Of a stretch of DNA of 64,000 bases, positions 15,830-61,776 are shown one piece after another. Below the pieces are notes generated by a model. That model made no database searches. It saw only the letters and a program-made list of their open reading frames with translations, and was not told the DNA's origin. Positions within the stretch are counted from its first letter, which is position 1; each line of letters begins with the position of its first letter. The stretch comes from Caenorhabditis elegans. Lineage: Eukaryota; Nematoda; Chromadorea; Rhabditida; Rhabditidae. A program made the position numbers and the translations under genes. Where the stretch lies: assembly GCF_000002985.6 (NCBI RefSeq), contig NC_003280.10:3592501-3656500 (forward strand), written 5' to 3'.

Positions 15830-17361
15830 CTATACCTCCCCCGGATACTCCGCATCGTCAATTTCCACCTTGACCAAAGTCATAGGACATCTCCGTCCCG
15901 GTTTCTCCACACCATGCATCTTCTCCCAAACCGACCGGTACACGATCAACTTGTCAGTGATCTGACGCTTCTGCACCTCGTACATCTGACTACGCCAGGT
16001 GCTCCATTGCTTCTTGGCGTCCTTCGAGAGTTTGGACCATTTTGGGTCTGAAATTGTATATTTTAATAGATATATTTGGTCTAGAAAATTCCCCTAATAG
16101 GGCTTAAAGGTAGGCGCCAAAACCCTCGACTTCATAAGACCTGCACCGATCTTGTGGAACCCAGAAAGTGTCGGCTGCTCTATACTCGCGTCTGCAAACT
16201 CACAATCCGGTCCATGAGACTTTTTCATTTGGTTCATGTAGAATGAGTCCGATTTCGATTGAATCACGATCTGGGGAATCGAGTGATCCACCGAGAATGG
16301 GTTGAACAGATAATTCCGGAAATCTGAAATCGAAAATTAATTGTGAAGACTTGCAATTGTCTCACCAAAAACATCGTTTTTAAAGATCCCGGTAGCATAT
16401 TTCCCAGTCCAAATTTGGCATGCAACATGGAAAGTCGGATAGTCTTCCGGTCCTGTTGGCGGATTAAATTCTGCGATGATCTCCAAACCGTCAACTTCGA
16501 GCTTTGAAGTTGTGGTGTTCTTGAAATGGTCCTTCAAAAAGTTACCAATTTCTTCGGTGGTCCATGTTTTGTCTAAAAATTACAGAAATTGGGTTTAGAA
16601 TCATTATGGAAAAAGAAACCACTAACTAATTTCAGGTCCCGGCGGGAACTGATGCATCAATGGTCCGGTTGTCAGCGGGGAGAAGTTGAGCTTGACGTCT
16701 GAAACTGCAATGTATCAAGGGATATACCTGATCTCTGAGGGAAGAAAGTTTACAGAGAATCGCAGTCGAGATCGATCCAGGCACAATTTGGAAAAGCCGA
16801 TAGCCTTTGGGGGTTCCGCGAGCCTAGATTGATGTCGGCTGCGCGTTCATCATAAGATTCCTCAGAGCCTGTTCAAGGACCTAACTACAAACTACAAAAT
16901 CTAGACTCACCTGAGCAGGCCGGCAAAAAGAGTCTTCTGGGCTCCGAGCTTGAAAGGCATTCTGATCCGTTTTGGAGATAAGAAACCAGCTGAACAGGTT
17001 CAGAACCTCCTCTGGAAGAAGCTTCCGAACAGCTCTGGAATACATCAGAGTTTTCAAAAAAGCTAGCCTTCTTTGGTTGAGCGACTTCCTCCTGATCATC
17101 CATGATCTCCTGTTTTGTCACTTTGAAGGAACAATTGTTCTCCCGGCGAAATTGTAGTCCTTGAGCTTTAGCGGTTTGCTCCTTCCAATCTTGTGGCTCT
17201 TGAGAACAGTCAAGATCCATACATTCCTCTAGGTTTTGAACACCTTCAACTTGATCACCAAAGTGTGTTGGGGAAGATCGAGGCGTGGCACATGAAGAAT
17301 ACATGTGATCCTTCCAGTTTTTACGGACCTTCTTGATGGAGTTTTGCTCTTGGTTGAGCAT
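15830..17361 (-). CDS. Orphan protein, 376 aa, with LFNP/W..LS two-exon module
   Basis: Five exons on the minus strand join in frame with phase-1 introns only: 17361-16911, 16698-16627, 16572-16366, 16323-16141 and 16047-15830 (1131 nt). The ATG at 17361 sits 1 nt after a TTTTCAG acceptor, so trans-splicing is likely. Residues 1-150 are polar and low in structure. The C-terminal two exons hold DFRNYLFNPF..IPQIV followed by PKWSKLSKDAKKQWSTW..MYEVQK, matching in order, spacing and intron phase a module found again in the genes at 49000, 58756 and 60697. No signal peptide or TM. The second half resembles a charged helical DNA- or protein-binding helix (HMG-box-like at best). I do not recognise the family; function unknown. 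The donor at 16140 (G/GTCTTA) is weak but needed for frame. Confidence 0.7.
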
Positions 17362-18322
17362 TCTGAAAATTTGAACGAATTTATAAAATCTAAAAACCGG
17401 AAACACAAAAAAAATATCCGATAAAAACATGGAAACGAAAAATAAAGAAGGACGCAGAGAACGCAAGAATCATAAAAATAAAAGTGAGCAAGTGCCTGTC
17501 GGGACCCCTTGTCCGCAAACAGAATGTGTCCGCAAACGACTGTCAATATGACGCCCCGAGAAGAATGGTCCTGTCCGCTAGAGCGCACTTTGTGCATGTA
17601 TTTCTCAATGTTTTTCCCTGGAATGTAATATTTTTTCTGCAAATAATTTAATTTCCATTTGACCAACAGGGAATGCGGGAAACTCCGGTTCCCTAGAAAT
17701 TTGACGTCAGAGTGTCGGGTAACCTTTTTTGCGACTTTTTTCTTCTTGTGAAACCCTTCCAAACTGATAATTTCTAACAAAAAGTTAAAACAAAAACATA
17801 GAAAAACGTTCGATTGATTTGAAAATAGTATTTGTTCCTATTGAGAATTCTAAAAAATCCTCTGTTTGTGTCTGAAAGCTGTAGAAAAAGTGCTGTTAAA
17901 TTCTGAAAATGTCGACTTTCAGACAGTGTTTTAGATTTCTTTCAAGCTTCTCAACAAAAAATAAATTTAATTTTCAAATCAGTCAAGCATTTTCCAGTAT
18001 TTCTAAACCGATTTTTAATTGGAATGTTGGATTTTCATACCGAAATTAATGGTTTATCATTTTCACAAAAACGTGAAATTTTTATTTCACTTCAACACAT
18101 TCGTATCCCCAAAACTTGAATTTATGTATTTATTCGCAAACGTGACATTTTTCTTGAAAACACCAATATTTAATATAAAATCATTCCACGTGCCCCTTCC
18201 CCTCCCCATTCTGCCCCAATTTCTTATCAGATTTTAAAATCTTCAACTTTGATCAGTCTTAGTCTTCTCAATCAATTCAATTTATTTCGACAATTTCTTT
18301 TCATTCGAGCTGCGGCGAAATA
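17362..18322. other. Divergent intergenic region
   Basis: Shared upstream region of the minus orphan and the plus WSN gene. 17470-17600 (ttgtccgcaaacag..tgtccgctagagcg) looks like a dispersed repeat patch. A long minus frame (17229-17780) crosses it but has no start or splice support. 18180-18215 is a C-rich tract just before the WSN transcript. Confidence 0.45.
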
Positions 18323-22852: not shown

Positions 22853-23004
22853 ATGTTTTATCAAGAAAAAGTTCGAACCGATTGTATTGTATTTTATTGT
22901 ATCGGATTGAATGTCGGTAATAAAGTTTTGAACTTAGTCAATAGTTTACAGTCGGTATTCTTCTGAAGCGCTGTTCTCGCCCGAAACACTCCTGCAAAAA
23001 ATGT

Positions 23005-29100: not shown

Positions 29101-29836
29101 GTTCGAACTGAAAACTTACAAGTTACTTACATTTACCATTAATTTTGCGTAACTAGAAATTTATATAAAAATGGTTAGTTCCTTTGGTATTTTCGTACTG
29201 CAATTTTTCAGAATTTAAGCAAAAACTTATATTTTTCATTAGAAGTTGTACCTCCTCCCAGCTCTTCCCAGCTACTTCCCAGCTTCATCATTTTTCCTTT
29301 TCTAGGTCAAACTTTATTTCAAAATATTCCAGCTCCATTCCATATTGCTCTTTTCTACTTCATTTTCGTTAGAACTCTACTCATACCTTTCCATCAACAA
29401 GCCCCAAAATCATCGGTCTCCCATAGTTACCTACACTTTTGCTGAACCCATGGGATTCCTTTATCATATAAATGTTGTTCCATTATAATTAGTGACTCAA
29501 TATCACATGCTCCCTGCGTCTCTTCCCCAGGACCCTCACCGCCGCGATCGATAAATTAGAGGTGGGGATAGGGAAAGGTGGGGCAAGACGAGGCACGCCA
29601 TATATATTTTCTTTCTTTTGTTTTTTTTTTTGAAATTAAAGAGTCTATCTAAATTCTGAAGCTCCCTCTTAAAATTTGTCCTCTAACTTAGTGTGTAGTT
29701 CTAGGAGAGAATTAGCCTCCCCACTTACTTTGAGAACTCCAGTAGCTGTTTTCTCTGTGATACTTTTCTCTCCTCTCGCAAATCCTTTCTAATATTATAT
29801 TTTCAATTTTCAGACTCCCTCCCTCTCAAATCTAAG
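26122..29836. other. Long intergenic region upstream of the A-B array
   Basis: AT-rich with many T/A homopolymers. Contains one full CGGCAAAT element (26890-27262). 29500-29610 is a GC-richer island (CCGCCGCGATCGATAAATTA) that stands out from the surroundings and could be regulatory. No supportable ORF; frames such as 28464-28769 lack splice or start context. Confidence 0.5.
26890..27262. repeat. CGGCAAAT-family element, full copy
   Basis: Inverse-orientation counterpart of 11088-11450. Terminal blocks of CGGCAAATCGGCAA flank a middle with GTACGCATTCCTTGAATGTT and AAAAATCCCTCTA. About 370 bp, no coding capacity. Confidence 0.75.
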
Positions 29837-31426
29837 ATGAATCAGGACTTTCTCCTCCAGGACTTCTCCCATTTATATGGCCTCAACCCAATGCTCCAAC
29901 CACTTCCGATGGGACTGCCGCCATTCGTTCCGATGGACTTCCCCAACCATGCTTCTTCCACTGCTCCACTGCTCTCCAGCCTGCTCAACGCTCCAGGATC
30001 ACTTTATGGTCCCGAGGGGCTGCTCCAAGGACCACCACCGTTGAGCCAGGACCAACTGAACTCGATTCTTCTCGGAGCGTTTACCAGACATCTTTCGGAT
30101 CCCGCAATGATTCCACTAGCCGATTTGGATCCGATGATCTGTCAAGCACCAAGCATCACCGAGCCCGTATCGAAGCACATAATGAGAACCAGAAGCCTCA
30201 CTCAGGACTCAGTGAAGGTCAAGCTTGAACCTGTAGAAGATGAGATAATCGACGTCGGAGTGAATAATTATCGTGAGTCGATAGACTTAAAGCTTCTGTT
30301 TACAACATTTAACATTTATTAATTTTCAGAACCTCCTCAAACATCTGTTGAGCCAGAGCAACAAGGATCTCCATCAGACTCTGATAGCAAGAAGCTTCCC
30401 GAATCCCCACAAAACAGTGCTCCACCGCCGTTGGAACTCGAGCAGCCAGAGCCAGCTCGAGCCTTGCTCAAGTCTGCCCCAAAAAGCTGTAACATATTTG
30501 AGACCATGGACATTATCTTAAAGTTTGATTATTTTCAGATGAGCAACTTGCAGCTGAGAATTCAGCGATGAAATTGGAGCTCGCATTTCTCAAGAGCGAA
30601 CTTGAACAGAAGGATAACAAAATTCTGGTGGTCGTAGCAGAAAATGTGATTCTCAGAGAGGAGTGGGATGCGAACATTGCTATCAAACAGGACTTGAGAG
30701 TTAAGCTCAAAGACCTTGAGGACAAGTTCGCGCAAAAGTCGAAGGAGCTGTCTGCTTCCAACTCGAACATCGCTCGACTCGAACGGAAAAACGAGAAGCT
30801 CAGTGAGGACATTTAGTTTTTTTTTTCCAAAATTTCACATTTCAACTTTCAGACTGCCGCTCAGCCAGATGCTCCACAAGCTTCAATTCGGACACCTCCA
30901 CGAGCATAACACCGGAGCCACACGGGCATCTGGCTCCTGAGCTGCAGCTCCCATCGGCTTCAGCTCTCAATGGGATGCTCCATGGGACTGGGTTCGCTAG
31001 AGATGGGCAGAGTAAGTCCACCCTGAAAGCTTTGAGCCTAATTTGGATAAACTTTTTATAGTCTCAGCCTATTTTTTTTCAGATTCGCCCAACCACACTC
31101 CCAAGGATTTTGGACACCTCCAGTGTACCTCGGACCTCCGAAAGTTCTTCCCAGAAAAAGTTGAACTCGGTATGTGTCGGCTACTTCATTACTTCATTTG
31201 AATTCAAAATTTCTAGAATGTCAAGTTTTCAGAAGCCCGTGAGAGCCCGAAAAGATCTAGAGGAGGCGGCGGAAGAGGACGCGGAGCCAGCCGAGCCAAA
31301 CGAGGAAGAGCCATCGTTCCCACCTATGATATGATTTTGGAGGCTCACAGCAAGCCCTATGTAAGTTTTGACCTATACTTTTGGCAGCTAGATATGACTA
31401 TTTTTCAGGTCCACCGTAACTACTGA
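29837..31426 (+). CDS. A-type protein: Pro-rich N-terminus, coiled coil, RG-rich tail (416 aa)
   Basis: Seven exons, joined in frame: 29837-30272, 30330-30488, 30539-30802, 30853-31011, 31083-31169, 31233-31360 and 31409-31426 (1251 nt). The start MNQDFLLQDFSHL follows a short leader. AATAAA at 31534. Residues 1-145: Leu/Pro-rich (PMLQPLPMGLPPF, LLQGPPPLSQDQL) ending in an acidic stretch with VKLEPVEDE, which matches the SUMO consensus. Residues ~150-200: Pro/Ser/Glu-rich. Residues ~200-285: heptad-like coiled coil (QLAAENSAMKLELAFLKSELEQKD). The C-terminus has SRGGGGRGRGASRAKRGRA, an RG-rich nucleic-acid-binding-like tail, and ends VHRNY. No signal peptide or TM; nuclear location is plausible. 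Five of six introns are phase 1. I do not recognise the family. Paralogs: 36795 (broken) and the 3' half of 38635. Confidence 0.75.
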
Positions 31427-31697: not shown

Positions 31698-34382
31698 ATG
31701 AGCTCCAACAACTACAACGAAGTTCAAGACGGTAAGAAGCTTTTTATTATTCAGGGTTACTGTAGAGTCGTGCAACTTTACGTACTGTAGTCTTACTTTG
31801 AGATTACTGTAGGGTTACTGTAGGATCACTCTAGGGATACAGTAGGGTCTCTTCAATGTAGTAATACTGTGCTACAACTGTGGAAATACTGTAGTACCTC
31901 TCACGGGTCGAGCCAATATCCTTAAACCCGTAAAATGTCGGTCAAATGTATTAGATCAAAATGAAGCTCGACTTCCAGCACCTGCAGGATCTCAGCACCC
32001 TTTCTGGAAACATAACTAATTTTACAGAGCGCCCGACCACCACCCAGCTCCCATCTCTTGCCTCTGTCGAATTTTGGCATTCTGGAAACCGTGAGGATTG
32101 GATGCATGCTCTATCGGCAGAATGTCAGCGTCTACTTCGTAAGTGTATTTTATAGATTTTCAGAAAAGAATTCACAATGATTTTCAGAGAGATCCGACGA
32201 AACAGCTTCAACCCAACAACATCAGCCAAGAGGATCCTCGGAGCTGCAAGCTTCCACCACACAGCTACTCGGTGAGTTTTTCAAAGATTTTTCCAGCAAA
32301 AAACAACATTTTCAGACTCATCCAGCCAAACTGAAATCTCGATGACGGAGAACAATGCTCTCGAGGCAGAAATTAATGAATTAAAGCAAAAAGTGAGGAT
32401 GCTCACAGACGACGGACAAAACAAGGAAAAGCAGACAAAGGAGTTGGAGGGAGTTCTGAACGTTGCCACGACAAGTGCCATGGAAGCTGCTCAGAAACTC
32501 CAAGTTCATCAGCAGAAGCTCAAACAGGAGCACAAGGAAGCAGTGGAAACCTTGGTAGAAGCTCTAAGAGCCGAGAAAGAGAAACTCGAGAAGATCTTGG
32601 AAGATGCAAGAAAGAAGGACGACGAAATCGAAGAGTTGAAGAAAAAAGTGAACTCTGAAAGTTCCAGAGCCACTTTAGCCGATGAAGCTGTTCAGAAACT
32701 CCAAACTGATAAAGATAAGCTTGAGGAGGAGTACATGAATGATATGCGTGATTTGAAAAAAGCTCTAAAAGACAACCAAGAAGGACTCGAGAAGATCGCC
32801 AAAGATGTCAAGAACAAAGAAGGCGAAATCGAAGAGTTAAAGAAAAGTGTGAGCTCTGAAATAGTCAAAGCCACGGAAGCAGCTCACGCCACTGATCAGC
32901 TCCGAAAAAAACTCCAGAAACAACAGGATGAGCACGAAAAAGTGATTGCGAATATGGAAGAAAATTTCGAAGCAGCAAAACTAGGAGCAGCAGCACAAGA
33001 AGAAGAAGAAATTGAGAAGCTCGCGGGGGACGGAAGGAAAAAGGACGACAAAATCAAGGAATTGGAGAATAATGCTGAGGACTTCAGAGGGTTGAGCAGG
33101 AGCATAAAAAAGAGATTGAAGACTTGAAAGGAGCTCTAGCAGCAGAGAAAAGAATTTCAGAAGCTGACAAAGTGGAATTGAAGAAGCTCACCGAGGAACT
33201 GCAGAGTATGCATCTCAAAAACAAGGAACTGAAGAATAATGTGACCACTGAGAATTCAAGGGCCACAGGAGCCGTTCAAGAGGCTCAGGTGCTCCAAGAA
33301 AAACTGCAACAAGCTTTGAAAGAGCTTGAGGGAAAGAAGAAAGAGCTTTTGGAACAAGAGAATGCTCACAAGCTCCGCATGGATCAGTTTGAAGACGACA
33401 CTAAGAAACGTCACAAAAAAGAAATCAAGGCGCTGGAAGTGGAAGTGAAAAAACGAAACGCCACTATTAAAGAACATCAAGTTGCTGCTCAAGAGAGAAG
33501 AGCGAAACATGATGCGGAAGTCGAAGAGCTCGAACAAAAATTGGCCACCGAAGAGGAGAAGTGCAGACGAATCGTCCAAGATATCAGGGAAAAGCTCGAT
33601 GCCCGTAAGTTTTTTTTTTTTGGATATTCGGCGAAACCAAATTTAGCAATTTTCAGAATTTCCGCCGATCTCCCGATCTCCGAGTACTGAATGCGTATGG
33701 CCAGAAATGATAATTGATGGTATGTTTGCAGTGTTCTAAGAGCACAACCAAGACAAACTTTAGTTCAAAGCGGATCTAACTTTAAAATGACCCCACCCAT
33801 ATCTAGGCTCAATTTCGCCTGCAAGGCGACCTATGCCTGCTGCCTACTGCCAAGGTACTACAAAATGTTGAGTGTGGTAGGCAGGCAAACGGGCAGGCAA
33901 AAACCTACCTACCTATTATAAAAGCCGGTCAAATTTTCAGATGTCTTTTGGCAACAGCCAAGCAGCTCCACATCCCACGTCTATTCTTCGTTTGCCTTTT
34001 CTACTCCACGTTCCAGCTCCCAAAATGCTCCAGTTCAAGAAGGTGAGCCGACGATCGCAAACTGATCCACATAGGAAAATGTGATAAACTTTTTTAGAAG
34101 CCACTTCGCACCAATCCACCTCCTCCGAGCCTGCTTCTTCTGCTCCGAACTCTAATTCTTCTCCAAATTCCTCAGGTATGTCACCCGCAGTCACCAGCTA
34201 CTTGTCCAATATTTCTGAGCCGTTTACTTTTTCAGCTCGAATTACCAGACGTCATGCGCCACCTTCCACCTCCAGAGCATCCAAAAGAATTGCAGCAAAA
34301 AATGCTCAGGAAGAGCCAACAAAGGTAAGTTGATGGTAATCACAGTGAAAGAGATAAACCCCATTTTCAGAAGCCAAAGTGA
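31698..34382 (+). pseudogene. B-type coiled-coil gene with frameshifting deletion
   Basis: Exons: 31698-31731, 32028-32138, 32188-32271, 32316-33604, 33657-33719, 33941-34042, 34098-34175, 34236-34324 and 34371-34382. The start MSSNNYNEVQDG matches its paralog at 38635. Exon 4 encodes about 430 residues of almost unbroken coiled coil rich in Glu, Lys, Leu and Ala. After NNAED (about 33085) the frame shifts: the paralog has ~130 nt here that are absent, so codons run into TGA at 33125. The other frame then continues KGALAAEKR..EKLDAR. Later exons are Ser/Pro-rich with a basic end (RITRRHAPPSTSRASKR). All introns but the last are phase 1. It could be a truncated ~290-aa protein, a pseudogene, or an assembly slip. 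Upstream coding sequence that exon 2 should have (31955-32027) contains a stop, and a different acceptor is used. Confidence 0.65.
31750..31895. repeat. TACTGTAG dispersed repeat in B intron 1
   Basis: Repeated TTACTGTAG/GGTTACTGTAGG units followed by AACCCGTAAAATGTCGGTC; the same pair of motifs lies in the corresponding intron of the paralog (38705-38880, 39145-39190). Confidence 0.75.
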
Positions 34383-36534: not shown

Positions 36535-36794
36535 AGAGTCTAGAGAGCTCAATCCTGCAACATATCAAAAGATGAACAAGTTTTACTAGTCTCCCGCAAT
36601 GATTTGAATGTAATAAATTCCTTTATTAATTTTTCAAATGTTTTCTTTTTTATAATCTCCCAATCGGTCATAACAAAGCAAATGTTTAATTGTTCCTCTG
36701 TGATTTTTTTGTAAATCAATTTTCCCTCAAATTTATCAGCTTGCAAAAATAGACACAATTTGTAGACACAGACTCCCTCCCTCTCAAATCTAGG

Positions 36795-38367
36795 ATGAAT
36801 CAGGACTTTCTCCTCCAGGACTTCTCCCATTTAAATGGCCTCAATCCAATGCTCCAACCACTCCCGATGAGACTGCCGCCGTTCGTTCCGATGGACATCC
36901 CCGACCACGCTTCGACTGTTCCGCTAGTCTCCAGCCTGCTCAACGCTCCAGGATCACTTTATGGTCCCGAGGGGCTGCTCCAAGGACCACCACCGTTGAG
37001 CCAGGACCAACTGAACTCGATTCTTCTCGGAGCGTTTACCAGACATCTTTCGGATCCCGCAATGATTCCACTAGCCGATTTGGATCCGATGATCTGTCAA
37101 GCAGCAAGCATCACCAAGCCCGTATCGAAGCACATAATGAGAACCAGAAGCCTCACTCAGGATTCAGTGAAGGTCAAGCTTGAACATGTAGAAGATGAGA
37201 TAATCGACGTCGGAGTAAATGATTATCGTGAGTCTATCCTTGAAGTTTCTGCTGCTTCCAAAATATATTAATTTTTCAGAACCTCCTCAAACATCCGTTG
37301 AGCCCGAGCAACAAGGATCTTTGTCGGACTCTAATAGCAAGAAGCTTCCCGAGTCGCCACAAAACAGTGCTCCACCACCTTTGGAACTCGAGCAGCCAGA
37401 GCCAGCTAGAGCCTTGCTCAAGTCTGCCCCAAAAAGCTGTAAGATATTTGAGATCATGGGCATTATCTTAAAGTTTGATTATTTTCAGATGAGCAGCTTA
37501 CAGCGGAGAATTCAGCAATGAAATTGGAGCTCGCATTTCTCAAGAGAGAACTTGAGCAGAAGGATGACAAAATTCTGGTGGTTGTAGCAGAAAATGTGAT
37601 TCTCAGAGAGGAGTGGGATGCGAACATTGCTATCAAACAGGACTTGAGAGCTAAGCTGAATGATCTTGAGGACAAGTTCGCGCAAAAATCGAAGGAACTG
37701 GCTGCCTCCAACTCGAACATCGCTCGACTTGAACGGAAAAACGAGAAGCTCAGTGAGAACATTTAGTTATTTTTTCGAAATTTCACATTTCAACTTTCAG
37801 ACTGCCGCTCAGCCTGATGCTCCACAAGCTTCAACTCGGACACCTCAACGAGCATCACGCCGGAGCCTCACGGGCAGCTGGCTCATGATCTGCAGCTCCC
37901 AACGGCTTCAGCTCTCAATGGGATGCTCCATGGGACTGGGTTCGCTGGAGATGCGCAGAGTAAGTCCACCCTGAAAGCATTGAGCCTAATTTGGATAAGC
38001 TTTTTATAGTCTCAGCCTTTTTTTTTTCAGAATCACCCAGCCACACTCCCAAAGAATTCGGACACCTCCAGTGTACACCGGATCTCCGAAAGTTCTTCCC
38101 AGAAAAAGTTGAACTCGGTATGTGTTGGCTAATTCATTTGAATTCAAAATTTCTAAACTCTCAAGTTTTCAGAAGCCCGTAAGAGCCCGAAAAGATCTAG
38201 AGGAGGCGGCGGAAGAGGACGCGGAGCCAGCCGAGCCAAACGAGGAAGAGCCATCGTCCCCACCTATGATATGATTTTGGAGGCTCACAGCAAGCTTTAT
38301 GTATGTTTTGACCTATATTTTTTGACAGCTAGAGAAGACTATGTTTCAGATCCACCGTAACTACTGA
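36795..38367 (+). pseudogene. A-type paralog with premature stop
   Basis: Second copy of the A gene, same exon plan: 36795-37227, 37280-37438, 37489-37752, 37801-37959, 38031-38117, 38173-38300 and 38350-38367. Exon lengths 2, 3, 5, 6 and 7 are identical to those of the copy at 29837. In exon 4 the codon after NCRSA is TGA (37815-37817) where the first copy has AGA, cutting off the C-terminal Ser/Thr region and the RG-rich tail. All downstream exons remain open and correctly spliced, so the mutation is recent or the short form (about 290 aa) is used. Exon 1 is one codon shorter than in the first copy. Alternative: a sequencing error at one base. Confidence 0.75.
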
Positions 38368-38634: not shown

Positions 38635-41378
38635 ATGAGCTCCAATAACCCCAACGAAGTTCAAGACGGTGAGAAATTTTTTGTTGTATTATTCATGTAT
38701 ATATTCAGGGTTACTGCAGTCATACTGTGGAGATACTGCTGAGTAGATTACTGTAGTTTTGAGCTTCTGTAGAATTATTATTATAGCGTCAATATAAGTC
38801 TAGAGTGGGACTACTGTAGGGTTACTGTAGAGATACTACAGGATTATTGTAGTACAAATTTAGGGTTTAAGTAGGGTCTCTTACCTTCTTAGATAGAATT
38901 TACTTTTTTCAAATTTTACAACCGTGAAAGTTTTCTCATTTAAATGTTCTGTTCTGAAAATTTTAGGAAATGGCGTTGATTTTTTAATTGTAAAGGTTTG
39001 AAATTAGTAAAAAAATTGTTTCCTCAGCTCAACTGTCACCGCTCACTACGAGCTCCACCAACTCTGCCCAAGCTCCAAGTGGTAAGAAGCTTTTGAGTTG
39101 GTTGATTCAGGATTTCTTTCGAAAACGAGATAAACAGCGGCCGACATCTTACGGGCCGATTCAATATATTTGAACCCGTAAAATGTCGGTCACTGCTACC
39201 TATCACTGATTGTGAGAGAAACTAGTGCTGAGAGGAATTTTAATATAAATTTTGATAATTATTTTCAATTGTTGCAGATCAAGAGGAAGCTCGAATTCCA
39301 GTACCTGTAGGATCTCAGCACTCTCCAGTCAATGCCGAGCTCCCATCCCTCGCCTCTGGCGAATTCTGGCATTCTGGTACCCGTGGGAATTTGAGACAAG
39401 CCTCATCGGCAGAGTGCCAGCGTCTGCTTCGTAAGTATATTTTATAGTTTTTTTTTAGAAAATAATTCATACATTTTTTCAGAGAGAACCGACGAAGCAG
39501 CGAAACAAAGTGCAGCAGCACAGGAAGAACAAATTGAGAAGCTCGCGGAGCAAGGAAGGAAAAAGGACGACAAACTCAAGGAATTGGAGAATAATGCTGA
39601 GGCGCTCAAAACTCAGCTCCAGGAGCAAACCAATGATGCCAAAAAAGCAAAGGACGAGCTGCAGAAAAGTCTGAAATCAGCAGCAGCAAGAGCCACAGAA
39701 GCAACTACAGCCGTTGCTGAGCTCCAAGCGAAGCTTCAGACGGTTGAGAAGGAGCATAAGAAAGAGATTGAAGACGCGAAAGAAGCTCTAGCAGCAGAGA
39801 AGCAAAATTCAGAACGTGAAAAAATGGAATTGAAGAAGCTCACCGAGGAACTGCAGAGAATGAATCTTGAAAACAAGGAACTGAAGAATAGAGTGGCCTC
39901 TGAGAATTCAAGGGCCACAGGAGCCGTTCAAGAGGCTCAGGTGCTCCAAGAAAAACTGCAACAAGCTTTGAAAGCGCTTGATGAAAAGACCACAAAACTT
40001 ACAACACAAGAGAATGCTCACAAGCTCCGCATGGATCAGTTTGAAGACGACACTAAGAAACGTCACAAAAAAGAAATCAAGGCGCTGGAAGTGGAAGTGA
40101 AAAAACGAAACGCCACTATTAAAGAACATCAAGTTGCTGCTCAAGAGAGAAGAGCGAAACATGATGCGGAAGTCGAAGAGCTCGAACAAAAATTGGCCAC
40201 CGAAGAGGAGAAGTGCAGACGAATCGTCCAAGATATCAGGGAAAAGCTTGATGCTCGTAAGTTTTTGTTAGATATTCGGCGAAACCAAATTTAGCAATTT
40301 TCAGAACTCCCGATGGGACTACCGCCGTTCGTTCCGATGGACATCCCCGACCACGCTTCCACTGCTCCTCTGGTTTCCAGCCTGCTCAACGCTCCAGGAT
40401 CGCTTTACGGTCTCGAGGGGATGCTCCAAGGACCACCACCGTTAAGCCAGGACCAACTGAACTCGATTCTTCTCGGAGCATTCACCAGACATCTTTCGGA
40501 TCCCGCAATGATTCCACCACTTGAACTGGATCCGATGATCTGTCAAGCACCAAGCATCACAGAGTCCGTATCGAAGCACATCATGAGAACCAGAAGCCTC
40601 ACTCAGGATTCAGTGAAGGTCAAGCTTGAACATGTAGAAGATGAGATAATCGACGTCGGAGTAAATGATTATCGTGAGTCTTTCCTTAAATCTTCTGCTT
40701 CTTACAACATATATTAATTTTTCAGAACCTCCTCAAACATCTGTTGAGCCAGAGCAACAAGGATCTCCATCAGACTCTGATAGCAAGAAGCTTCCCGAAT
40801 CCCCACAAAACAGTGCTCCACCGCCGTTGGAACTCGAGCAGCCAGAGCCAGCTCGAGCCTTGCTCAAGTCTGCCCCAAAAAGCTGTAACATATTTGAGAC
40901 CATGGACATTATCTTAAAGTTTGATTATTTTCAGATGAGCAACTTGCAGCTGAGAATTCAGCGATGAAATTGGAGCTCGCATTTCTCAAGAGCAAACTTG
41001 AACAGAAGGATGACAAAATTCTGGTAGACAAGTTCGCGCAAAAGTCGAAGGTGCTGTCGGCCTCCAACTCGAAAATCGCTCGACTTGAACGGAAAAACGA
41101 GAAGCTCAGTGTATTTTCTTCAGAATTTTACATTTCAATTTTCAGATTGCCGCTCAGCCACATTCTCCACAAGCTTCAACTCGGACACCTCAACGAGCAC
41201 CGCACCCGAGTCTCACGGGCAGCTGGACAATGTGTTGCAGCTTCCAACGGCTTCTGCTCTCAATGGGGTTACCAAGGAAAATCACTTAGCCGAGTCATTG
41301 AAACAAATTCCATTGTTACGACTTCCGAAGAAAGCTCTCTTCAGAAGCTTCCGTCAAATGGCTATTCAAGACTTGTAA
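38635..41378 (+). CDS. Chimeric B-A fusion protein (649 aa)
   Basis: Nine exons in frame, all introns phase 1: 38635-38668, 39028-39081, 39278-39430, 39483-40256, 40305-40673, 40726-40884, 40935-41108 and 41146-41378, with 38635 as start (MSSNNPNEVQDG); sum 1950 nt over the eight listed coding blocks. The N-terminal ~338 residues are B-type: Ser-rich leader, then coiled coil (ENNAEALKTQLQEQ..EKLDA). The next exon switches to A-type at QLPMGLPPFVPMD, lacking only the first ~22 residues of A, and continues through the acidic VKLEHVEDE, the Pro/Glu exon and a shortened coiled coil. That coiled coil has lost 37 codons in frame after DDKILV. The A-type RG tail is absent; the protein ends RSFRQMAIQDL. 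The join lies at the B intron acceptor (TTTTCAG at 40304). Both parents are present in the window. Unknown function. Confidence 0.72.
38705..38880. repeat. TACTGTAG dispersed repeat in intron 1 of the chimeric gene
   Basis: Counterpart of 31750-31895; ATACTGTGG, TTACTGTAG and GGGTTACTGTAG units. Confidence 0.7.
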
Positions 41379-42571
41379 GTTTCGTTTATTCTCATTATCA
41401 GCATCTTCAATTTTTCCTTACTTATATGCGTCGTGACGCCCGAAATTCAATAATGATTGTTTTATTAAGAAGATAAAAAGCCCGGGCCAAAATTCATAAC
41501 TTTTCTCGTTGCACATACATAGATTGATTTGAAATTGTGGGAATTTCTGTTGTTAACCATGATCTTTCGTAGAAACTATTTTCAGGCTTCCGCCCAGTTT
41601 AACTTTTTTAAAGCTTCATACTTTGTTAAATAAGTGAGGTTCAGAATACAATGGAAAAATACATTAAGAGTTAAAAAAAAAGGTTTTTAAAGTTGTCACA
41701 AATTCCAATTTTGCATAAAAAATAAAGAAACAAGTATGTAAACATTTAGATCTAGTTGGACACAGTTAGGTGGCAAAAAACAACAATATCTTCGTGTAGT
41801 TTTGCAGTATTTTGTAAATTATTGTTTGAAGAACTCTTGACGAACGACTATTTTTAGAACCCAATTTTCAAACTTTTATTGAGTTTTTACATTGTATTTC
41901 AAACGAAACAAAATCATCTTTCTGAAAAGAGTAGCTCCTTTAGGGCATTTGGTGTGATTAGATTTTTTTGAAACTACATAAAATGAACTATGATGGTTGA
42001 GAATCTTATCTTTTAATGTGTGAGCAGCGCACTTGATAATCACAGAAGCTATACACCATGCGTGACTTTGAAGCAATAGACAACTGTAATTCTCAAAAGT
42101 ACTAGAAATTTAATTTATTATTAAGAGTACTATTTATATACATTTTTTGCATTATGGGGTTATTCAAGTAATGTAGCAAAATGTATTTAAATACATGTTT
42201 TTATATACTTGAATAAGGTTGTGACGTAATTTTTCTACACTTTTTAATTTTCCGACACTATTTGAATAACCCCATTAGGTTTTGCGCATGTTAATCGCTT
42301 TGAAAATACGTGTTAAATACAAGTATTTATGGTTTTCCATAGGGTTGTACAAATCGGCGTCCGGTCGTCCGATTTTGACACGACCGGACGCACATGCGTC
42401 CGGTTTGGGGTAGGTTTCCACGGCGGCCGACAATTTCCGAGTTTTGCCACTTGCTATACTAATCATAGAATTCTATAGTGAGTGGCGAAACCCAGAAATT
42501 GTCGGCCGCCGTGGAAAGAACACACTTGGAGTTCATAATCATTTTTTTTAACTAGAAATCTTCTTTTCAGG
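41379..42571. other. Intergenic region with hairpin
   Basis: AT-rich sequence after the chimeric gene; contains the GC-rich hairpin listed at 42415-42516. No supportable ORF. Confidence 0.45.
42415..42516. repeat. Inverted repeat (GGCGGCCGACAATTTC hairpin)
   Basis: Arms 42415-42457 and 42473-42516 pair over about 43 nt with few mismatches, loop about 15 nt. Directly left (42357-42402) is a second nested pair, GCGTCCGGTCG against CGACCGGACGC. Looks like a small palindromic element next to the truncated F-box gene. Confidence 0.75.
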
Positions 42572-48999: not shown

Positions 49000-51374
49000 A
49001 TGGACCATCCTTTCAGTGGAGATTTTGGCTATCACGACGGAGGTAACTGTCATTTCAGAGATAAAAATCAATACTCACCTAACTATTTCAGATCATTTCC
49101 AGTATCCCAACTTTACCACTGACCAGCAACAAATTTTCCACTTTGGAATGAATATTGAAGCAAGATACGAATCAATGGAATTCCAGATTCAATCAGCAGG
49201 AGGTAAGAGGGGGGTTTCGAATAAGGACGTTTTAAATTGCCGGCTGAAGCCTGCTATCGCCTACTATCGCCTGCTAGCGCCTACTATCGCCTGCTATTGC
49301 CTACTATTGCCTGCTATCGCCTGCTGTCGCCTACTATCGCCTACTATCGCCTGCTATCGCCTGCTAACGCCATTCGACGCCCGTTGACCCCCGCTGACGC
49401 CTTCTGACGCTCGAATGAATTTGTCTTTGAGTTTCAGTTCCCCAACATCCAGATCATCATGCTGATCATCCGCATACCTATGCTCCTCCGGGATGTAACA
49501 AAACCTTCCACACAGCACAAATGCCTCAGCACACTGCTCCTACAGCTCCGCCAGCTCTTCCAACATACTCCACTCATAAAGAGGCCGTTGAACAGTGGAA
49601 GATCTGGCAGGAGGATCATGCTTTTTCAGAGATGTTTAGAAAGTTTGGTTAGCAATTTTAATACCTTTATCACCAATAAACATATCTCATTATTTCTTCA
49701 GATGTGCCAAATCTTCTGTTCAACCCTCTGGGCGAGCAAAGAACTCCCCAAGCAGTTCGATCGGTGCCCAAGGATGGATACAGCTTGTTCCGCTATCGCC
49801 GTATGGTTTTTGGTGCCAAGGATCAGCTCAAACACGGTATGCACTATAGAAATTACAGTAGGAAATAAGAAATATTAAATTTCAGATAAAGCATGGAATA
49901 ATCGATCACTTCCACAAAAAAGTCGATGGAATCAAGCATCTGTAAAGTTGGCACAATATCAGAAGGCTGAAGAAAAAATGGGCTTCATCAAAGTTTTTGG
50001 AACCGAAGAGTTTCAGAACTATTCCAAACGTCGGGGACAGACCCGGAACTCTTTTGGTGAGGCAGTCGGAGCGGTTTAATTTATTTAAAATTAAATTTCA
50101 GGTGTCAATCGGCAGTGGGATTTGTCAATTGAAGGAAAAGTCGTGGTCAGAACTTCGGCATCAGTAGAGCACAGTGGAGCATCTGGTGCTTCAACTTCAA
50201 GCTCCAGCTACAAAACATCAAGCCATGGACAACTGACCGGTGAGTTCTTTATCAGGCTATTGGAGTAACTTCTTTAAAAATTTCAGAGCCAGCTTCTCTC
50301 GAGAGCTACTGGAAAACTCGTTGTCTTCAGCTAGAGCAAGGTAAGTTACATATTATTTCACTGTGCTAGTGTATATATTGAGATTTCAGAAATGGAGAAA
50401 CTGAGCAACAACATCAGCAGTCTCACAGTAGAAAAAGATAAGGAGATCAAGCTCATCGTCAATGGTAGATCATATTGATTTGCGTAGCACCTTGTTAAAT
50501 ATCGATTTTTTCAGAGAACCGGCAGCTGAGAAGCCAACTGAAACAAAAAGACATAGGTAAACTTTAGAAATCGATTTTTTTGATTCTTAAATTTTTAGAA
50601 ATCATTGGAATCAAAAGCTGCGTTAACTTCCTTCAAGATCCCCAAAGAGACGCGAAGTCGATAAAAAAAGGTGAATCTTTGTAAATTTAGATTCTAATAA
50701 TTTTAATGTGGACTTCAGAACTTCCTGTCCAAGTTGATCCGAGCACTCCTAGAGACAATGAGCTCATGGATTGCTCCGGTTCGTGGCTCAGCTTTTCTTA
50801 CTTCACGATCCTAAAATTTTCAGATATTTCCATCCCAATCGCTGCTCCAACCGAGAGCTCAGGCCCCCTTCACTACTTTCCGTCAACGGTCGCCAAGACT
50901 GGAGCCCGCCAGCTCTACAAAATGTGGAAAAATCACCATTCCGAGGAGCTTCTGTGCCTTGAGCAGTTTGGAATAGGCAAGTTGTCAAATCAATTTTAAA
51001 ATATATGTTTTTTTGGTTTCCAGATCTTTCTCGCTGGCTTTTCACAGAGGGTTCTCAGACAACTCCACAAAGAGTTCGCAGAGCCACAAGAGCTCAGGAA
51101 CTCTACAAGTTGGAGAAAACTAGAGGTAAGGCGTAGCAATGTGAAAAAATTTATGGAAACTTACATATTTCAGGGATGTACTGGGAAGATCTTTCAAGAA
51201 ACGAGCGAAAAGCGTGGAGTGAGAAGCTTACCCAACTGCGGAAACTTCAGAAGAGCTTAGAGGCCTTGAAACTTGTTCAGACTCTGACCTGCGAAGAATG
51301 GAAAAAGAAGGGTAACCGTGTGAGGAATAGTTCTAAAAAAGTTGTTCAAATTTTCAGACGATCTTCTCGTCTAG
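49000..51374 (+). CDS. Orphan protein with two LFNP/W..LS modules (506 aa)
   Basis: Fifteen short exons, every intron phase 1: 49000-49042, 49092-49202, 49438-49647, 49702-49836, 49886-50056, 50102-50239, 50287-50340, 50390-50464, 50515-50556, 50599-50670, 50719-50778, 50824-50976, 51024-51125, 51174-51311 and 51358-51374 (1521 nt). The start MDHPFSGDFGYHDG follows TTTAG/GGA. Residues 1-121: His/Gln/Pro-rich. Module 1 (122-223): DVPNLLFNPLGE..TPQAV, then WNNRSLPQKSRWNQ..KLAQYQKAEEKM. Residues ~270-350: short coiled-coil exons. Module 2 (422-501): DLSRWLF..TPQRV, then YWEDLSRNERKAWSEKLTQLRKLQK. The intron after 50976 has a GC donor (AATAG/GCAAGT), required for frame. The second half of each module is HMG-box-like at best. 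No signal peptide or TM. Function unknown; relatives at 15830, 58756 and 60697. Confidence 0.75.
49236..49380. repeat. 10-bp minisatellite, GCCTGCTATC units
   Basis: About 13 tandem units of GCCT(A/G)CTATC with scattered changes, inside intron 2 of the module gene; runs out into GCCCGTTGACCCC. Confidence 0.85.
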
Positions 51375-54744: not shown

Positions 54745-54933
54745 TAAATGGGAAGAACGCGCTGAAATTATTGATTGAATGTGGTTTTGTACAAACGATC
54801 TTATTTGAAACATCATCTGCTCGCTGCTTATAGATTGACCTTTTCCAGATTAGCACTCTATTGTCTGAAACTCTTTTCTCTCTTCCACTCGATTTGCTCG
54901 AGGACGTCTCATTTGTCTTCTTTCTCAATCGAC
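54745..54933 (+). promoter_or_regulatory. Conserved F-box-cluster upstream region
   Basis: Same motif series as at 53105; GCTTATAGATTGACC ~85 bp upstream of the ATG. Confidence 0.6.
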
Positions 54934-57344: not shown

Positions 57345-58605
57345 TGTCTAATTTTGAAAGAATTTGCAAACTTTTTGAAAATAACATTACTTTTAACTTA
57401 AAAATTTGAAAACTTGCTCAAAAACTCTTTCAAAATTTCTGTATATGTCTATAAAAATTCCAAAACGAATAGTTTGACATAACAATGAGAAAAAGGGAAT
57501 ATTGTAAATGTGTTGAAAAAATATGCCTTACATATCTTTTGGCTACCATATTTTGAAGATAACAGATGATATCAAACCAAAACTGAGTAGCTACTATTTT
57601 ATGAAGGTTTCAGCATACTTTACCATCTCAAAACATAATGATATCAATAGTTTCAGAAAAGTTACATGCTATTTTCTAAAATTTTAGATTTTTGTCCATA
57701 AAATTCTTCATTTTCAACTTCTCTTCTTCAAATTTTGATGAAACATCGTACTTTTTAGTCCTCTATAAGTTTTCAAAAAAATTTTTCAAAAATGTTGGCT
57801 AATCTCCAAAATCGTCCTTCGCTCTCAAAAACGAAAGTGGACTTTTGCCTTCCGAAAAATGGGCGAAAAAATGAAATTGTGATTTTTGGGTCGAAAAAAA
57901 TATTTTTAGAAAGCTGAGAACACGTTAAACACGAATATCCTGTTTATTTTGGCATCCAGATTACCTGAAAATGACTGACATAGATTTAAGAAAGCAAATT
58001 TTTTAAAATCATTTTCTACGTGAAAGGCCTTTTTTCCTCCTATCAATTTTCGGATTCTAAAAAGCTGCACAAAACTTTCACGTAAAAAATGATAAAAAGT
58101 ATTCGCTTTTTAAAATCTATGTCAGTCATTTTCAGGTAATCTGGAGGCCGAAATAAACATGATATTCGTGTTTAGCGTGTTCTCAGCATTCTGAAAATAT
58201 TTTTTTCGACCCAAAAATCACAATTTCATTTTTTCGCTCATTTTTCGGAAGGCAAAGGTCCACTTTCGTTTTTGAGAGCGAAGGACGATTTTGGAGATGA
58301 GTCAACATTTTTGAAAATTTCTTTTGGAATCGAATAGAAGACTGAAAAAAACGATCATTAATCAAAATTTGAAGCAAAATTGTTGAAATTGAAGGATTTT
58401 ATGGACAAAAATCAATAATTTCATAAAACTGCGTGTAACTTCCCTGAAAACACTGATATTAATATGTATCAAATTTTTTTTTGAAAACTTATACAGAAGT
58501 ATAGAGAAATACCTGTACTTTTTGAAAATTATTTTACTTTTGTTCAAAATTTTTGAAAAGTTGCTCAAAAACTTACAGGAATATCAATGTGGCATGTGGC
58601 ATTCG
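57345..58605. mobile_element. Palindromic (foldback) element 2, ~1.25 kb
   Basis: Same family as 51716-53080. Halves meet near 58030 (AACACGTTAAACACGAATATCC left against ATATTCGTGTTTAGCGTGTT right). The left arm is longer than the right. No coding capacity. Ends about 150 bp before the start of the module gene at 58756. Confidence 0.82.
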
Positions 58606-58755
58606 GTGAGATAAGAGGGCTTTGAAAACTTTCTCAATGTGCAGCCCAATCTATTTTAATATTATTTACGACTCATTTTTCATACTTTTTTGTGAACTAA
58701 AGCCGTTAATCTAAATCTATTGATTAATTCTTAAACTTTAAGACAAATTAAAATC

Positions 58756-60418
58756 ATGTCAGCCTCCCCAAATTTCATTGCGGATTTCTGTGAAGCTTCC
58801 GAGTTTCCAACAGTTTCTTGGAGTAGAGAAGAAGAAGCTTCCCAGAACGGGTACAGCTTCATGGATCATTACCCAGATCCAGGTAACAAGCCATTCTTTC
58901 CAGTTCCTAAGCAGTGAAAATTTTTTTCAGAAGCCACCTTCCGCTGTGAGGATGAAGAGTGGAATCCTCGGCCAGTTCTGCAAGAGCTCGGCCAGAACTT
59001 TGAAGCTCAAGCGGTGTCGATCGCCGAGCTTATCCCAGCTCCACAAAAGTCCAAGCTTGAAGCTCATTTCAGTAAAATCTTTGTTTATTTTACTCTCTGA
59101 ATATAAGACATTTTTTCCAGGCTGGGCTCAGTTTAGCCAGAAAATTGGAATTAGCCCAGAAGAGGGACTAGTGATGACTGGTGAGTTTTCTTTTTTTTTT
59201 AAATTTATTTAAACTAAAATCTTTATTGTTAAAAAGCTTTTTCTCAGAAAAATTGGCTGCGGTGTCGAAGAGGGATCCAGCCGATGATCCACGCACATCA
59301 CGGATGAAGACGCTGAAAGTTCAACATCATTTAAAGAATGTCAAATTGGAAGAGGTTCATAGACTCCAGCAGGGTAGGTTTTGCTAGAATTTTGTGGTAT
59401 TGGAAAACTATGTTTCTGATTTTTTTCCAGTGAATCAAAAACTCGTCAGGAGGATCGAAGAATGGGAAAGTATAGCTCGGTATCAGGAAAAGATCATTCA
59501 GTGTAAGTCGTAGAACTTCATGCAGCACTGACCAAAATTATCCCCTAACTCCACGTTGTTTTGTTGGCCTCAGGGCCTTACGGCTGCCTGAAACCTGCCG
59601 GTATCCGCCACTCAATCCTGCATTCTGTCGGAAAATCATTAGGAGCGGCCGACACTTTTTGTGTTCCGCGCCGCACTTTACTTTCGGCGTACCGGAAGGT
59701 CGTCGAGGCGGGTGCACTAGCTTTTGGAACAATTGTCTAGAACAAACCTGTGAGATGTCGGCGGCTATATCGGAAAGCTTACCAAGCCAAAACTGTAAAA
59801 GAGCTAGGATTTGAGCATTTTAGCTTCGGCAACCTGTATGTCTATAAACTCCTTTATTTACAGGCACCAACCCCGAGTATTCTATCAATGCCCAATTTCC
59901 CCAACTCTCATCAACTACACCACCAATTTCAACTCAACATCCCGTTCCAAACGTTGTCCTGGGAGAAACACCCGCTCCGAGCAAGTTCGAAGAAAATAAA
60001 GAAGCCCATTCCCAATGGTGCTCGGAACATCAAAATGTGCTCGAAAAACTGAACGAGATCCTAGGTAAGATAACATATCTTTATCCATGATTAGATCCAT
60101 TTTTTCCCCAGACACCTCCAAATGGCTCGTCGATCCAACGGTGTCCATTCTCCCACAAACAGTGCCCAAAGCAACAAATTCAAAAGTGGTATATGTTCGA
60201 AGCGGAGCTGGAAGTAAATTTTACAGAAATGTTTCATTCAATTTGAGTTTTTTGTTTCAGCAGCCAGTGATTGGCACGGGCTAGAAGGTGATGAAAAACT
60301 GGATTGGTACGAACTTCACGGATCATTGCAAAGGCTTCAAAGGCAACAAGAAGCGCTGAAATGGGTCAGGCCGTTGAATGCTCAGGATTTTAGACGGAAA
60401 AATAACAGAACTCATTGA
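58756..60418 (+). CDS. Orphan protein with one LFNP/W..LS-type module (328 aa)
   Basis: Eight exons, all introns phase 1: 58756-58882, 58931-59071, 59121-59180, 59248-59373, 59431-59502, 59864-60064, 60112-60213 and 60261-60418 (987 nt). The start is MSASPNFIADFCEASEF. Residues 1-110 are acidic; ~110-175 basic and helical (TLKVQHHLKNVKLEEVHRLQQ, a short coiled coil); ~176-240 Ser/Thr/Pro-rich. The C-terminal two exons (243-328) are the module: DTSKWLVDPTVSILPQTV, then DWHGLEGDEKLDWYELHGSLQRLQRQQEALK. Intron 5 (361 nt) is much longer than the others and holds a GC-rich insertion (59575-59760). No signal peptide or TM. Function unknown; belongs with 49000 and 60697. Confidence 0.7.
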
Positions 60419-60696
60419 GAAGTAAGGTATATCTGATTACATAGTTTTAAGTAAGAATTATTTTTTTGGTCCCTTTTATTTATTTTCCTGGCGTATTTGC
60501 AATAATGTTTTACAGTTTTACAGTTTCAAAAGTTTCAACGTGTCTTCATAATCAATTTCTAAAAGGTTCCTAAACCCCTTTAAAATTATATATGTCTCCA
60601 TTTGTTCCCACTTTTTGTCGCCCGTCCCCCTGTTTTTATAATTTTATTTATTGAAGTTCTTTGCCAAAAATGTATAATTTATATTTTAACTTTTAG

Positions 60697-61776
60697 CAAC
60701 ACCATCCTCTCATTCAGCTGCTCTTTACCAATACCCAGCTACCCAAAATCCTGAGTTCCCGCCAGGCCCAGCTAATCTTGGAGCAAGTCAGCATGGTCAG
60801 TGCCAGGAGAACGACTGGTGGCTTATGACACAAAGAAATCAATATTTAGAGCATCAAGCTAGACAGAATTTTGGTAAAAAAAGCTATTTACAACTGGAAA
60901 ATATATAATTTTTTTATTTCAGACCAAATCCGCCACCTGGAGCAGGTAACCTGGGAGCTGCAACAAAAAGTGCACTACCTTGAGGAGGAAGCTCGGAGAA
61001 ACACTCAACGTATACATTTTCTATAGAAAAAAATGTACTAAAACGATCAAAATTTCAGCCATCCAGTGCCAATGCTCAAAGATCTCAAACTCCACGCCAA
61101 ATCCCCATCGCCTGATAAAACAGGAGCTCGGTCAGTTTTCTTAATTATTCAATTATTATTTTTTAATTTTTTTCAGTTGAAGACCCAAATGTGCCCTCGT
61201 CGTCTACCCCCGTCGTTTCCCGGGACCCCATCGATGACGAATTCGAGGAGATCATCCCCTTCAACCCTGTGTCTGATATTCCGAACGTGAAGCCTCTGGT
61301 GGTCCCGAGCCCACCAGAGCTCTCTCAAGTTCCAAGCTTCGAGGAGGCTTGTGAAATCTATGAGAGATGGGAGGATAGGGATAAAGTAATTGAAGGCGTT
61401 GGTGAGTTGAAGCTTCCTGGAGCATGTTCTGTAAGAAGTTTTCAGATTTGACGACGTTCCTGTTCAACCCGCAAGGCTCTCGTAAAATGCCCCAGAAAGT
61501 GAGAAATGTCGTCGGATCGTTTACAGTTTTTCAAGACTTTTTCACAAGGGAAACCGGGATCACTGGACGGGCTGTCAGTGAGTATCTGATTCTTGAAGTC
61601 GGTGGCAGTTCAAATGTTTTTCAATTTCAGACGGGTATTGGCGTGGGCTGGCTCCAGATGAGAAGCAGGAATGGGGCAAAAGATCTGCACAACTCCGGAA
61701 GTGGCAAAATTGGCAGATCAAGAATTGCTTGGTTCGGGGATGCAATAAGGACCAGCTGAAGAAATTGGGAAATTAG
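60697..61776 (+). CDS. Orphan module-family gene, 5' end not found
   Basis: Exons 60697-60873, 60923-61009, 61059-61130, 61177-61401, 61446-61577 and 61631-61776, in frame, all introns phase 1. The first exon opens from a TTTTAG acceptor with one missing codon base, so a 5' exon is expected but none is visible in the 278 bp after the gene at 58756. The first in-frame Met is at 60825 (MTQRNQYLEHQ), giving 236 aa if used. Parts: Tyr/Gln/Pro-rich start, a short coiled coil (DQIRHLEQVTWELQQKVHYLEEEA), an acidic exon (DDEFEEIIPFNP.., EEACEIYERWEDRD), then the module DLTTFLFNPQGS..MPQKV followed by YWRGLAPDEKQEWGKRSAQLRKWQ. It may be a partial duplicate or the 3' part of a larger gene. Confidence 0.6.

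What the first reader, a model, noticed from the sequence alone, without database searches (positions are those of the whole stretch)
15830..61776. A previously unrecognised two-exon protein module, five copies in four genes
Exon 1 of the module starts with a phase-1 Asp (Thr/Leu follow) and reads D-x2-x-x-LFNP (or WLxDP/WLF) then, 6-8 residues on, PQ-x-V. Exon 2 has W within its first 4-5 residues, then LS/LA..EK..W and a basic Leu/Gln helix. It is seen at 16323-15830 (minus), 49702-50056, 51024-51311, 60112-60418 and 61446-61776. The intron between the halves is phase 1 in all five. The helix half is faintly HMG-box-like, but I know no named domain that fits the whole.
Basis: partly seen in the sequence, partly recalled or inferred. 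Interest (0 to 1): 0.85.

Follow-up and report, generated by a model that had tools for sequence, protein, structure and literature searches.

The report
Worm family of divergent HMG-like modules
Four neighbouring worm genes carry five copies of a real, fast-diverging protein module that no Pfam model recognises; its second half most resembles part of a shrunken HMG box, a common DNA- or protein-docking domain, so it looks like a new variant of a known kind.

Summary
Five copies lie where stated, with a phase-1 intron in each; profiles found no sixth copy in the window. A profile of any four copies recovers the fifth, spliced, at 28.9-48.0 bits; none of 1000 shuffles of each copy reached its score.

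Two corrections. The preceding exon also seems to belong: adding it raises 5 of 5 leave-one-out scores by 7-17 bits. Phase 1 is not special: all 29 introns of my hand-made models of the four genes are phase 1.

No Pfam-A model reaches its cut-off. Among the five families compared, only the HMG box rises above shuffles: hhalign 23.6, 0 of 300 shuffles, at the helix-2/helix-3 corner. The only three PDB hits of the whole-module profile are HMG proteins, but at E 1-2.7, and other PDB searches gave none. The P-to-W stretch is 8-18 residues shorter than in SOX2, so canonical HMG membership fails. Consensus sequences gave sub-threshold DUF3293 hits instead. Best reading: a degenerate HMG-like basic docking module, comparable to MEG-3's shortened HMG-like motif. 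DNA or partner binding is inferred, not shown.

The parts
16204..16323 (-). copy A, exon 1 of module (D..LFNP...PQ.V)
15833..16047 (-). copy A, exon 2 of module (W..LS..K..W helix), C-terminus of gene A; stop 15832-15830
16366..16572 (-). gene A exon preceding the module; its 3' part is the shared 'exon 0'
15830..17361 (-). gene A model (by hand), 5 exons, 355 aa, 4 of 4 introns phase 1; no heptad-like stretch above shuffles
49521..49647 (+). 'exon 0' of copy B (first coding exon of gene BC model)
49702..49836 (+). copy B, exon 1
49886..50056 (+). copy B, exon 2
50287..50670 (+). linker exons between copies B and C, with a heptad-like stretch (score within the shuffle range)
50824..50976 (+). 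'exon 0' of copy C; followed by a GC donor if the phase-1 junction is right
51024..51125 (+). copy C, exon 1
51174..51311 (+). copy C, exon 2
49521..51374 (+). gene BC model (by hand), 13 exons, 427 aa, 12 of 12 introns phase 1, module - linker - module
59864..60064 (+). 'exon 0' of copy D
60112..60213 (+). copy D, exon 1
60264..60415 (+). copy D, exon 2 (stop 60416-60418); CAGCAG acceptor, alternative start 60261
58861..60418 (+). gene D model (by hand), 8 exons, 292 aa, 7 of 7 introns phase 1; the true start may lie upstream of 58861
61177..61401 (+). 'exon 0' of copy E
61446..61577 (+). copy E, exon 1
61631..61773 (+). copy E, exon 2 (stop 61774-61776)
60592..61776 (+). gene E model (by hand), 7 exons, 292 aa, 6 of 6 introns phase 1; first exon and its donor are a guess

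Best explanation
The module is a strongly diverged, shortened HMG-box-like domain that a nematode gene family has duplicated within and between genes. Shown here: it is a homologous unit, five times in four gene models, probably of three exons, and its exon-2 half shares the register of the HMG-box helix-2/helix-3 corner (W, L at +3, K at +8, aromatic at +11, then a long helix). Inferred: exon 1 supplies an N-terminal strand (PQxV, like P-x-R-V in SOX2) and a helix-1 remnant; the intron falls in the loop before the conserved W; helix 2 is shortened, and in copies C and D probably lost. The modules carry a net positive charge (+3 to +11). In gene BC two modules flank a heptad-like linker; in D and E a heptad-like stretch precedes one module; gene A has none. 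Most likely mechanism: heptad stretches multimerise the proteins and present several basic HMG-like docking surfaces, which bind either DNA/chromatin or a protein partner. I put these two about equally likely.
For: Homology: leave-one-out 28.9-48.0 bits, 0 of 1000 shuffles for each of 5; the preceding exon adds 7-17 bits in 5 of 5. hhalign of the 5-copy profile with 15 HMG boxes: score 23.6, E 6e-4; column shuffles mean 9.1, max 20.5, 0 of 300 reach it. Homeodomain, Myb/SANT, MADF and tropomyosin sets score 7.7-11.9, inside their own shuffle ranges, 60 shuffles each. Random 8-member HMG subsets: 20.1-24.8 in 10 of 10, the alignment reaching back into helix 1 (40-46 columns) in 6 of 10; in a second 10 subsets 19.0-25.4, with 9 of 10 above all 60 shuffles and 1 reached by one shuffle. 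Dropping any one module copy: 20.2-24.6, 5 of 5. All 3 PDB sequences hit by the whole-module profile are HMG proteins: SOX-2, and HMGB1 twice. AlphaFold2 of exon 2 (5 rows, mean pLDDT 88.5): extended GYWRGLA, then a 23-residue helix. Net charges +3 to +11. Precedent: C. [quoted passage not shown]
Against: No Pfam HMG model is hit even at E 10 by single copies, gene-model proteins or consensus sequences. Consensus sequences instead hit DUF3293: typed consensus E 4.8e-4 (21.1 bits, cut-off 25); computed consensuses E 0.0062, 0.17 and 0.019 in 3 of 6; never a single copy. PDB E-values for HMG are 1-2.7 and 1-3.5, not significant singly; copy B alone, a consensus and the exon-2-only profile (SLFN11, E 0.021, best stretch 6.8) hit no HMG protein. 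Exon-1 half alone is not significantly HMG-like: 14 of 150 shuffles reach it. hhalign probability is 28.6%, default alignment 26 columns; several subset scores (20.1-20.5; 19.0-20.2) do not exceed the highest of the 300 full-set shuffles (20.5). P-to-W distance is 23-33 residues against 41 in SOX2. Foldseek: one match per model, E 6.6 and 9.3. In exon 2 the long helix is followed by a loop and a short helix, unlike a plain HMG helix 3 (recalled). Heptad scores lie within their shuffle ranges.
Confidence: 0.52

Rival explanations
1. A genuinely independent nematode domain of three exons. The W..LS..EK..W corner resembles the HMG box by convergence on a helix-cap motif; the LFNP/PQxV part and the preceding W-rich helix pack with it into a fold not related to HMG.
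For: No Pfam hit above cut-off; exon-1 half not HMG-like on its own; P-to-W spacing too short for helices 1 and 2 in C and D; preceding exon shared; no useful Foldseek match; exon-2-only and consensus PDB searches not HMG.
Against: HMG is the only one of five families compared that rises above shuffles, and all three PDB hits of the whole-module profile are HMG proteins.
Confidence: 0.28
2. A descendant of the GCNA/MEG-3 type of shortened HMG-like motif specifically, acting in germ-granule protein docking rather than on DNA.
For: MEG-3/MEG-4 show that Caenorhabditis has shortened HMG-like motifs that dock proteins (PMC8238508, passages; PMC9686995, one passage).
Against: No sequence comparison with MEG-3 or GCNA was made (their sequences were not in hand). 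MEG-3 has a long disordered N-terminus; three of these four gene models have heptad-like stretches instead.
Confidence: 0.1
3. A relative of another known family, for which the only lead is DUF3293 (Pfam PF11697).
For: Sub-threshold hits of consensus sequences: E 4.8e-4 and 0.0062, 0.17, 0.019 in 3 of 6.
Against: Always below the curated cut-off (13.0-21.1 against 25 bits), absent for 5 of 5 single copies and 4 of 4 gene-model proteins, and matched to different stretches in different consensuses; consensus sequences inflate scores. No DUF3293 alignment was in hand for a profile comparison.
Confidence: 0.07
4. Chance resemblance or mis-assembled exons: the five segments are not homologous.
For: Exon 1 of A and D and exon 2 of B are not significant alone; identity is 19-31%.
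Against: 0 of 1000 shuffles reach the spliced leave-one-out score for any of 5 copies; the same splice phase and neighbouring exon recur.
Confidence: 0.02

Closest known systems
HMG box (Pfam PF00505 / PF09011)
   Same: Register of the helix-2/helix-3 corner: W, L at +3 (4 of 5 copies), K/R at +8 (5 of 5), aromatic at +11 (5 of 5, all W), long basic helix. Copy C exon 1 also lines up by eye with the SOX2 N-terminus and helix 1 (PQRVRRATRAQELY / PDRVKRPMNAFMVW).
   Different: Below every Pfam threshold; P-to-W stretch 8-18 residues shorter than in SOX2; extra shared N-terminal exon and LFNP motif; Q in 5 of 5 at +22, where most HMG boxes have an aromatic or His; a short extra helix after the long one.
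MEG-3/MEG-4 HMG-like motif (GCNA-related), Caenorhabditis
   Same: A shortened HMG-like motif (44 aa in MEG-3) in a worm protein, with protein-docking function shown by experiment (PMC8238508, passages).
   Different: Sequence relation not tested; different architecture (long disordered N-terminus).
HMG20/BRAF35 and SMARCE1/BAF57 (recalled, from no call)
   Same: HMG box together with a coiled coil in one chromatin protein.
   Different: Canonical HMG boxes; no evidence of orthology.
DUF3293 (Pfam PF11697)
   Same: Sub-threshold matches of consensus sequences.
   Different: Not matched by any of the five real copies; below cut-off in every case; not compared profile to profile.

Membership tests
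HMG box | Reaches a curated Pfam HMG model | tested here: not met
   no HMG hit at E up to 10 for 5 single copies, 4 gene-model proteins, 2 typed and 6 computed consensus sequences; 15 of 15 recalled control HMG boxes hit
HMG box | Profile similarity above shuffles and above other helical DNA-binding families | tested here: met
   score 23.6, 0 of 300 shuffles; four other sets at background (small recalled sets); in 1 of 10 HMG subsets one of 60 shuffles reached the real score
HMG box | Helix-2/3 corner W-x2-L-x4-K-x2-aromatic | tested here: met
   both W in 5 of 5; L at +3 in 4 of 5 (R in B); K/R at +8 in 5 of 5
HMG box | N-terminal strand and helix 1 (P-x-x-V/P ... A-Y/F-x2-F/W) | tested here: inconclusive
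   exon-1 half alone, 14 of 150 shuffles reach it; alignment extends into helix 1 in 6 of 10 subsets
HMG box | Full length, three helices in about 70-75 residues | tested here: not met
   P-to-W offset A 27, B 33, C 23, D 23, E 32 against 41 in SOX2; little room for both helix 1 and helix 2 in C and D
HMG box | L-shaped fold | tested here: inconclusive
   only an intron-containing read-through of copy C (pLDDT 66.7, pTM 0.35) and exon 2 alone were folded; Foldseek found nothing useful
HMG box | DNA binding or bending | not testable with these tools
   net charge +3 to +11 only
GCNA/MEG-3 HMG-like motif | Sequence match to the published GCNA HMG profile | not tested
   no MEG-3 or GCNA sequence in hand; passages of papers only
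DUF3293 (PF11697) | Reaches the curated Pfam cut-off | tested here: not met
   0 of 5 single copies and 0 of 4 gene-model proteins hit it at E up to 10; consensus hits 13.0-21.1 bits against a cut-off of 25
MADF or Myb/SANT | Profile similarity above shuffles | tested here: not met
   scores 11.9 and 9.6 against shuffle maxima 16.8 and 13.5 (small recalled sets, not verified; the second of the two MADF rows is not a real sequence)

The most novel reading that the evidence does not exclude
A new three-exon, phase-1-bounded nematode domain, not in Pfam, that spreads by exon duplication and makes multivalent coiled-coil scaffolds; either a new fold, or an HMG box that lost helix 2 and absorbed a new N-terminal helix.
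Probability: 0.35. Interest if true: 0.55.

Novelty: new variant of a known kind. Interest (0 to 1): 0.4.

Why it matters
If right, it adds an unannotated, fast-evolving HMG-like family to the worm repertoire, would let these genes be named, and gives a second case beside MEG-3 of a shortened HMG motif in Caenorhabditis. It would test how far the HMG box can be cut down and what it then binds.

Tried and rejected
Whole-genome search was not possible: no genome is held for the window. Rfam gave 0 matches at gathering score. Pfam gave no hit at or above a cut-off for modules, gene-model proteins or consensus sequences; stray weak names (MatP_C, DUF5044, Nrap_D2, Vasculin, DUF7082, DUF72 and others) are rejected as sub-threshold and inconsistent between copies. 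DUF3293 recurs in 4 of 8 consensus queries (1 of 2 typed, 3 of 6 computed) and is kept as a minor rival. PDB: copy B alone gave a glucan-binding protein at E 0.99; a typed consensus gave six hits, best E 0.51, none HMG; the exon-2-only profile gave SLFN11, rejected because its best single stretch is E 6.8 over 19 residues. Foldseek found nothing useful. Six literature searches showed no description of this family in their listings; only the MEG-3 motif was relevant. A SUMO-type motif (psi-K-x-E) was considered: one per gene model, but shuffles give 0.27-0.73 per protein, so it is not evidence. The neighbouring family at 29.7-41.5 kb was checked for hidden modules: the five-copy profiles found none, and reading by eye agreed.
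Full report
Observation. I re-read the five segments and their splice sites. Each copy has an AG acceptor, a phase-1 Asp, D..xxLFNP (or WLFTE in C, WLVDP in D), PQxV, a GT donor in phase 1, and an exon 2 with W as its third complete codon. In the alignment of the five spliced copies 8 columns are invariant, although pairwise identity over the three-exon alignment is only 19-31%.

Is it more than chance? A profile from four copies was used to score the fifth against 1000 shuffles of itself. Real scores were 29.2 (A), 31.4 (B), 48.0 (C), 28.9 (D) and 45.3 (E) bits; the highest shuffles were 8.6-11.9; 0 of 1000 reached the real score in 5 of 5 cases. Separately, on 2105 six-frame ORFs of the window, exon 2 of every left-out copy ranked directly behind the four training copies, though B only with E 0.3, while the best hit in the reversed window was 0.27; exon 1 of A and D was not recovered alone. 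With all five in the profile, no further copy exists in the window: the best other ORF has E 0.53 for exon 1 and 1.8 for exon 2.

Boundaries. The exon before 'exon 1' is also shared (EA..xW..W pattern, ending in the first base of the Asp codon). Alone it beats 1000 of 1000 shuffles in A, B and E but not in C (57 of 1000 reach it) and D (74 of 1000). Added to the module it raises the leave-one-out score in 5 of 5 copies (to 37.7, 48.8, 64.3, 35.5, 52.5). The module is therefore probably three exons.

Gene models (made by hand from splice signals and frame). Gene A: 5 exons, 355 aa, module at the C-terminus. Gene BC: 13 exons, 427 aa, module B - linker with a heptad-like stretch - module C. Gene D: 8 exons, 292 aa, heptad-like stretch then module D; its start may be further upstream. 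Gene E: 7 exons, 292 aa, same order; its first exon is a guess. All 29 introns (4 + 12 + 7 + 6) are phase 1. I picked junctions partly to keep the frame, so this is a property of consistent models rather than an independent measurement, but it means that the phase-1 intron inside the module is not special. Such 1-1 exons can be duplicated in frame, which would explain the spread of the module. The heptad scores (4.6-5.3 in BC, D and E; 3.0 in A) lie within the range of 60 shuffles each, so 'coiled coil' is inferred.

What it is. Pfam has no model for it: no hit at or above a cut-off for five single copies, four gene-model proteins and two typed consensus sequences, or six computed consensus sequences. 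The best sub-threshold name is DUF3293: E 4.8e-4 for one typed consensus (21.1 bits, cut-off 25) and E 0.0062, 0.17 and 0.019 in 3 of 6 computed ones, but for none of the five real copies. The whole-module profile against 177,635 PDB sequences gave exactly three hits with E up to 10, all HMG proteins: SOX-2 E 1, HMGB1 E 1.8 and 2.7 (the same three at 1, 2.3 and 3.5 with a trimmed alignment). The SOX-2 alignment runs from PQxV to the long helix.

Profile-profile comparison with 15 HMG boxes scores 23.6 (E 6e-4, probability 28.6%); column shuffles average 9.1 with a maximum of 20.5, none of 300 reach it, and the reversed profile scores 7.5. The signal sits in exon 2 (0 of 150 shuffles); exon 1 alone is not significant (14 of 150). 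Homeodomain, Myb/SANT, MADF and tropomyosin sets are at background (small recalled sets). The result does not depend on one HMG sequence or one module copy: 20.1-24.8 in 10 of 10 HMG subsets and 20.2-24.6 with any copy removed. A second set of 10 subsets gave 19.0-25.4; 9 of 10 exceeded all of their 60 shuffles and in one a single shuffle reached the real score.

Results against. Copy B alone, a consensus and the exon-2-only profile hit no HMG protein in PDB. Exon 2 folds as an extended W-containing start, a 23-residue helix, a loop and a short helix (mean pLDDT 88.5); the extra short helix is not HMG-like. A read-through of copy C with its intron kept gave a poor model (pLDDT 66.7, pTM 0.35). 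Foldseek gave one match for each model, at E 6.6 and 9.3. The distance from the P of PQxV to the first W of exon 2 is 27, 33, 23, 23 and 32 residues in A to E, against 41 in SOX2 as aligned. So a canonical three-helix HMG box does not fit, least of all in C and D.

Mechanism. Committed reading: a degenerate HMG-like module, positively charged (+3 to +11), presented in several copies by multimerising proteins, docking on DNA/chromatin or on a protein partner. The precedent for the second is MEG-3 of C. [quoted passage not shown] PMC9686995, one passage). Nothing here shows binding.

Setting. The neighbourhood is Caenorhabditis-like: of ten ORFs scanned, five gave informative names, among them an srh chemoreceptor, a Piwi/HRDE-1/NRDE-3-type Argonaute (two ORFs), a mariner-type transposase and an F-box-associated FBA_2 gene. 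The species is not known.

Noticed in passing
29705-31400, 36790-38360, 40295-41500: A second tandem family of three genes (LLQDFSHL...LPPFVPMD... in two, the third starting within this motif; then a Lys/Glu-rich heptad-like exon). In the 36.8 kb copy a late exon reads as an Arg/Gly-rich tail (KSPKRSRGGGGRGRG), and a like stretch follows the 30 kb copy, suggesting nucleic-acid binding. No module of the finding in it; no Pfam hit for 29705-30319.
   Followed up: partly
32276-33687 and 39395-40291: Two long Lys/Glu-rich coiled-coil-like ORF regions interleaved with that family; they share a nearly identical stretch, seen in the antisense ORFs 33259-33642 and 39911-40267. No Pfam hit for 39395-40291.
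   Followed up: partly
9236-10318 minus: Uninterrupted mariner-type transposase ORF of 361 codons (Transposase_1, HTH_48).
   Followed up: partly
11661-14406: Argonaute-like ORFs: HRDE-1/NRDE-3 N-terminal match (below its cut-off) at 11661-12506 and a Piwi-domain match at 13279-13977.
   Followed up: partly
59503-59863: The 361-base intron of gene D may hold an inserted repeat; 26 of the 29 introns in these gene models are 42-67 bases, the exceptions being 156, 212 and 361.
   Followed up: no
50977: The intron before copy C exon 1 appears to use a GC donor (GC-AG intron).
   Followed up: no
60261-60264: Tandem CAGCAG acceptor at copy D exon 2, allowing one residue more or less.
   Followed up: no
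about 49150-49400: Minisatellite-like stretch just upstream of gene BC (repeated Y-R-L-L-S/A-P-T/A-I-A in one reading frame).
   Followed up: no
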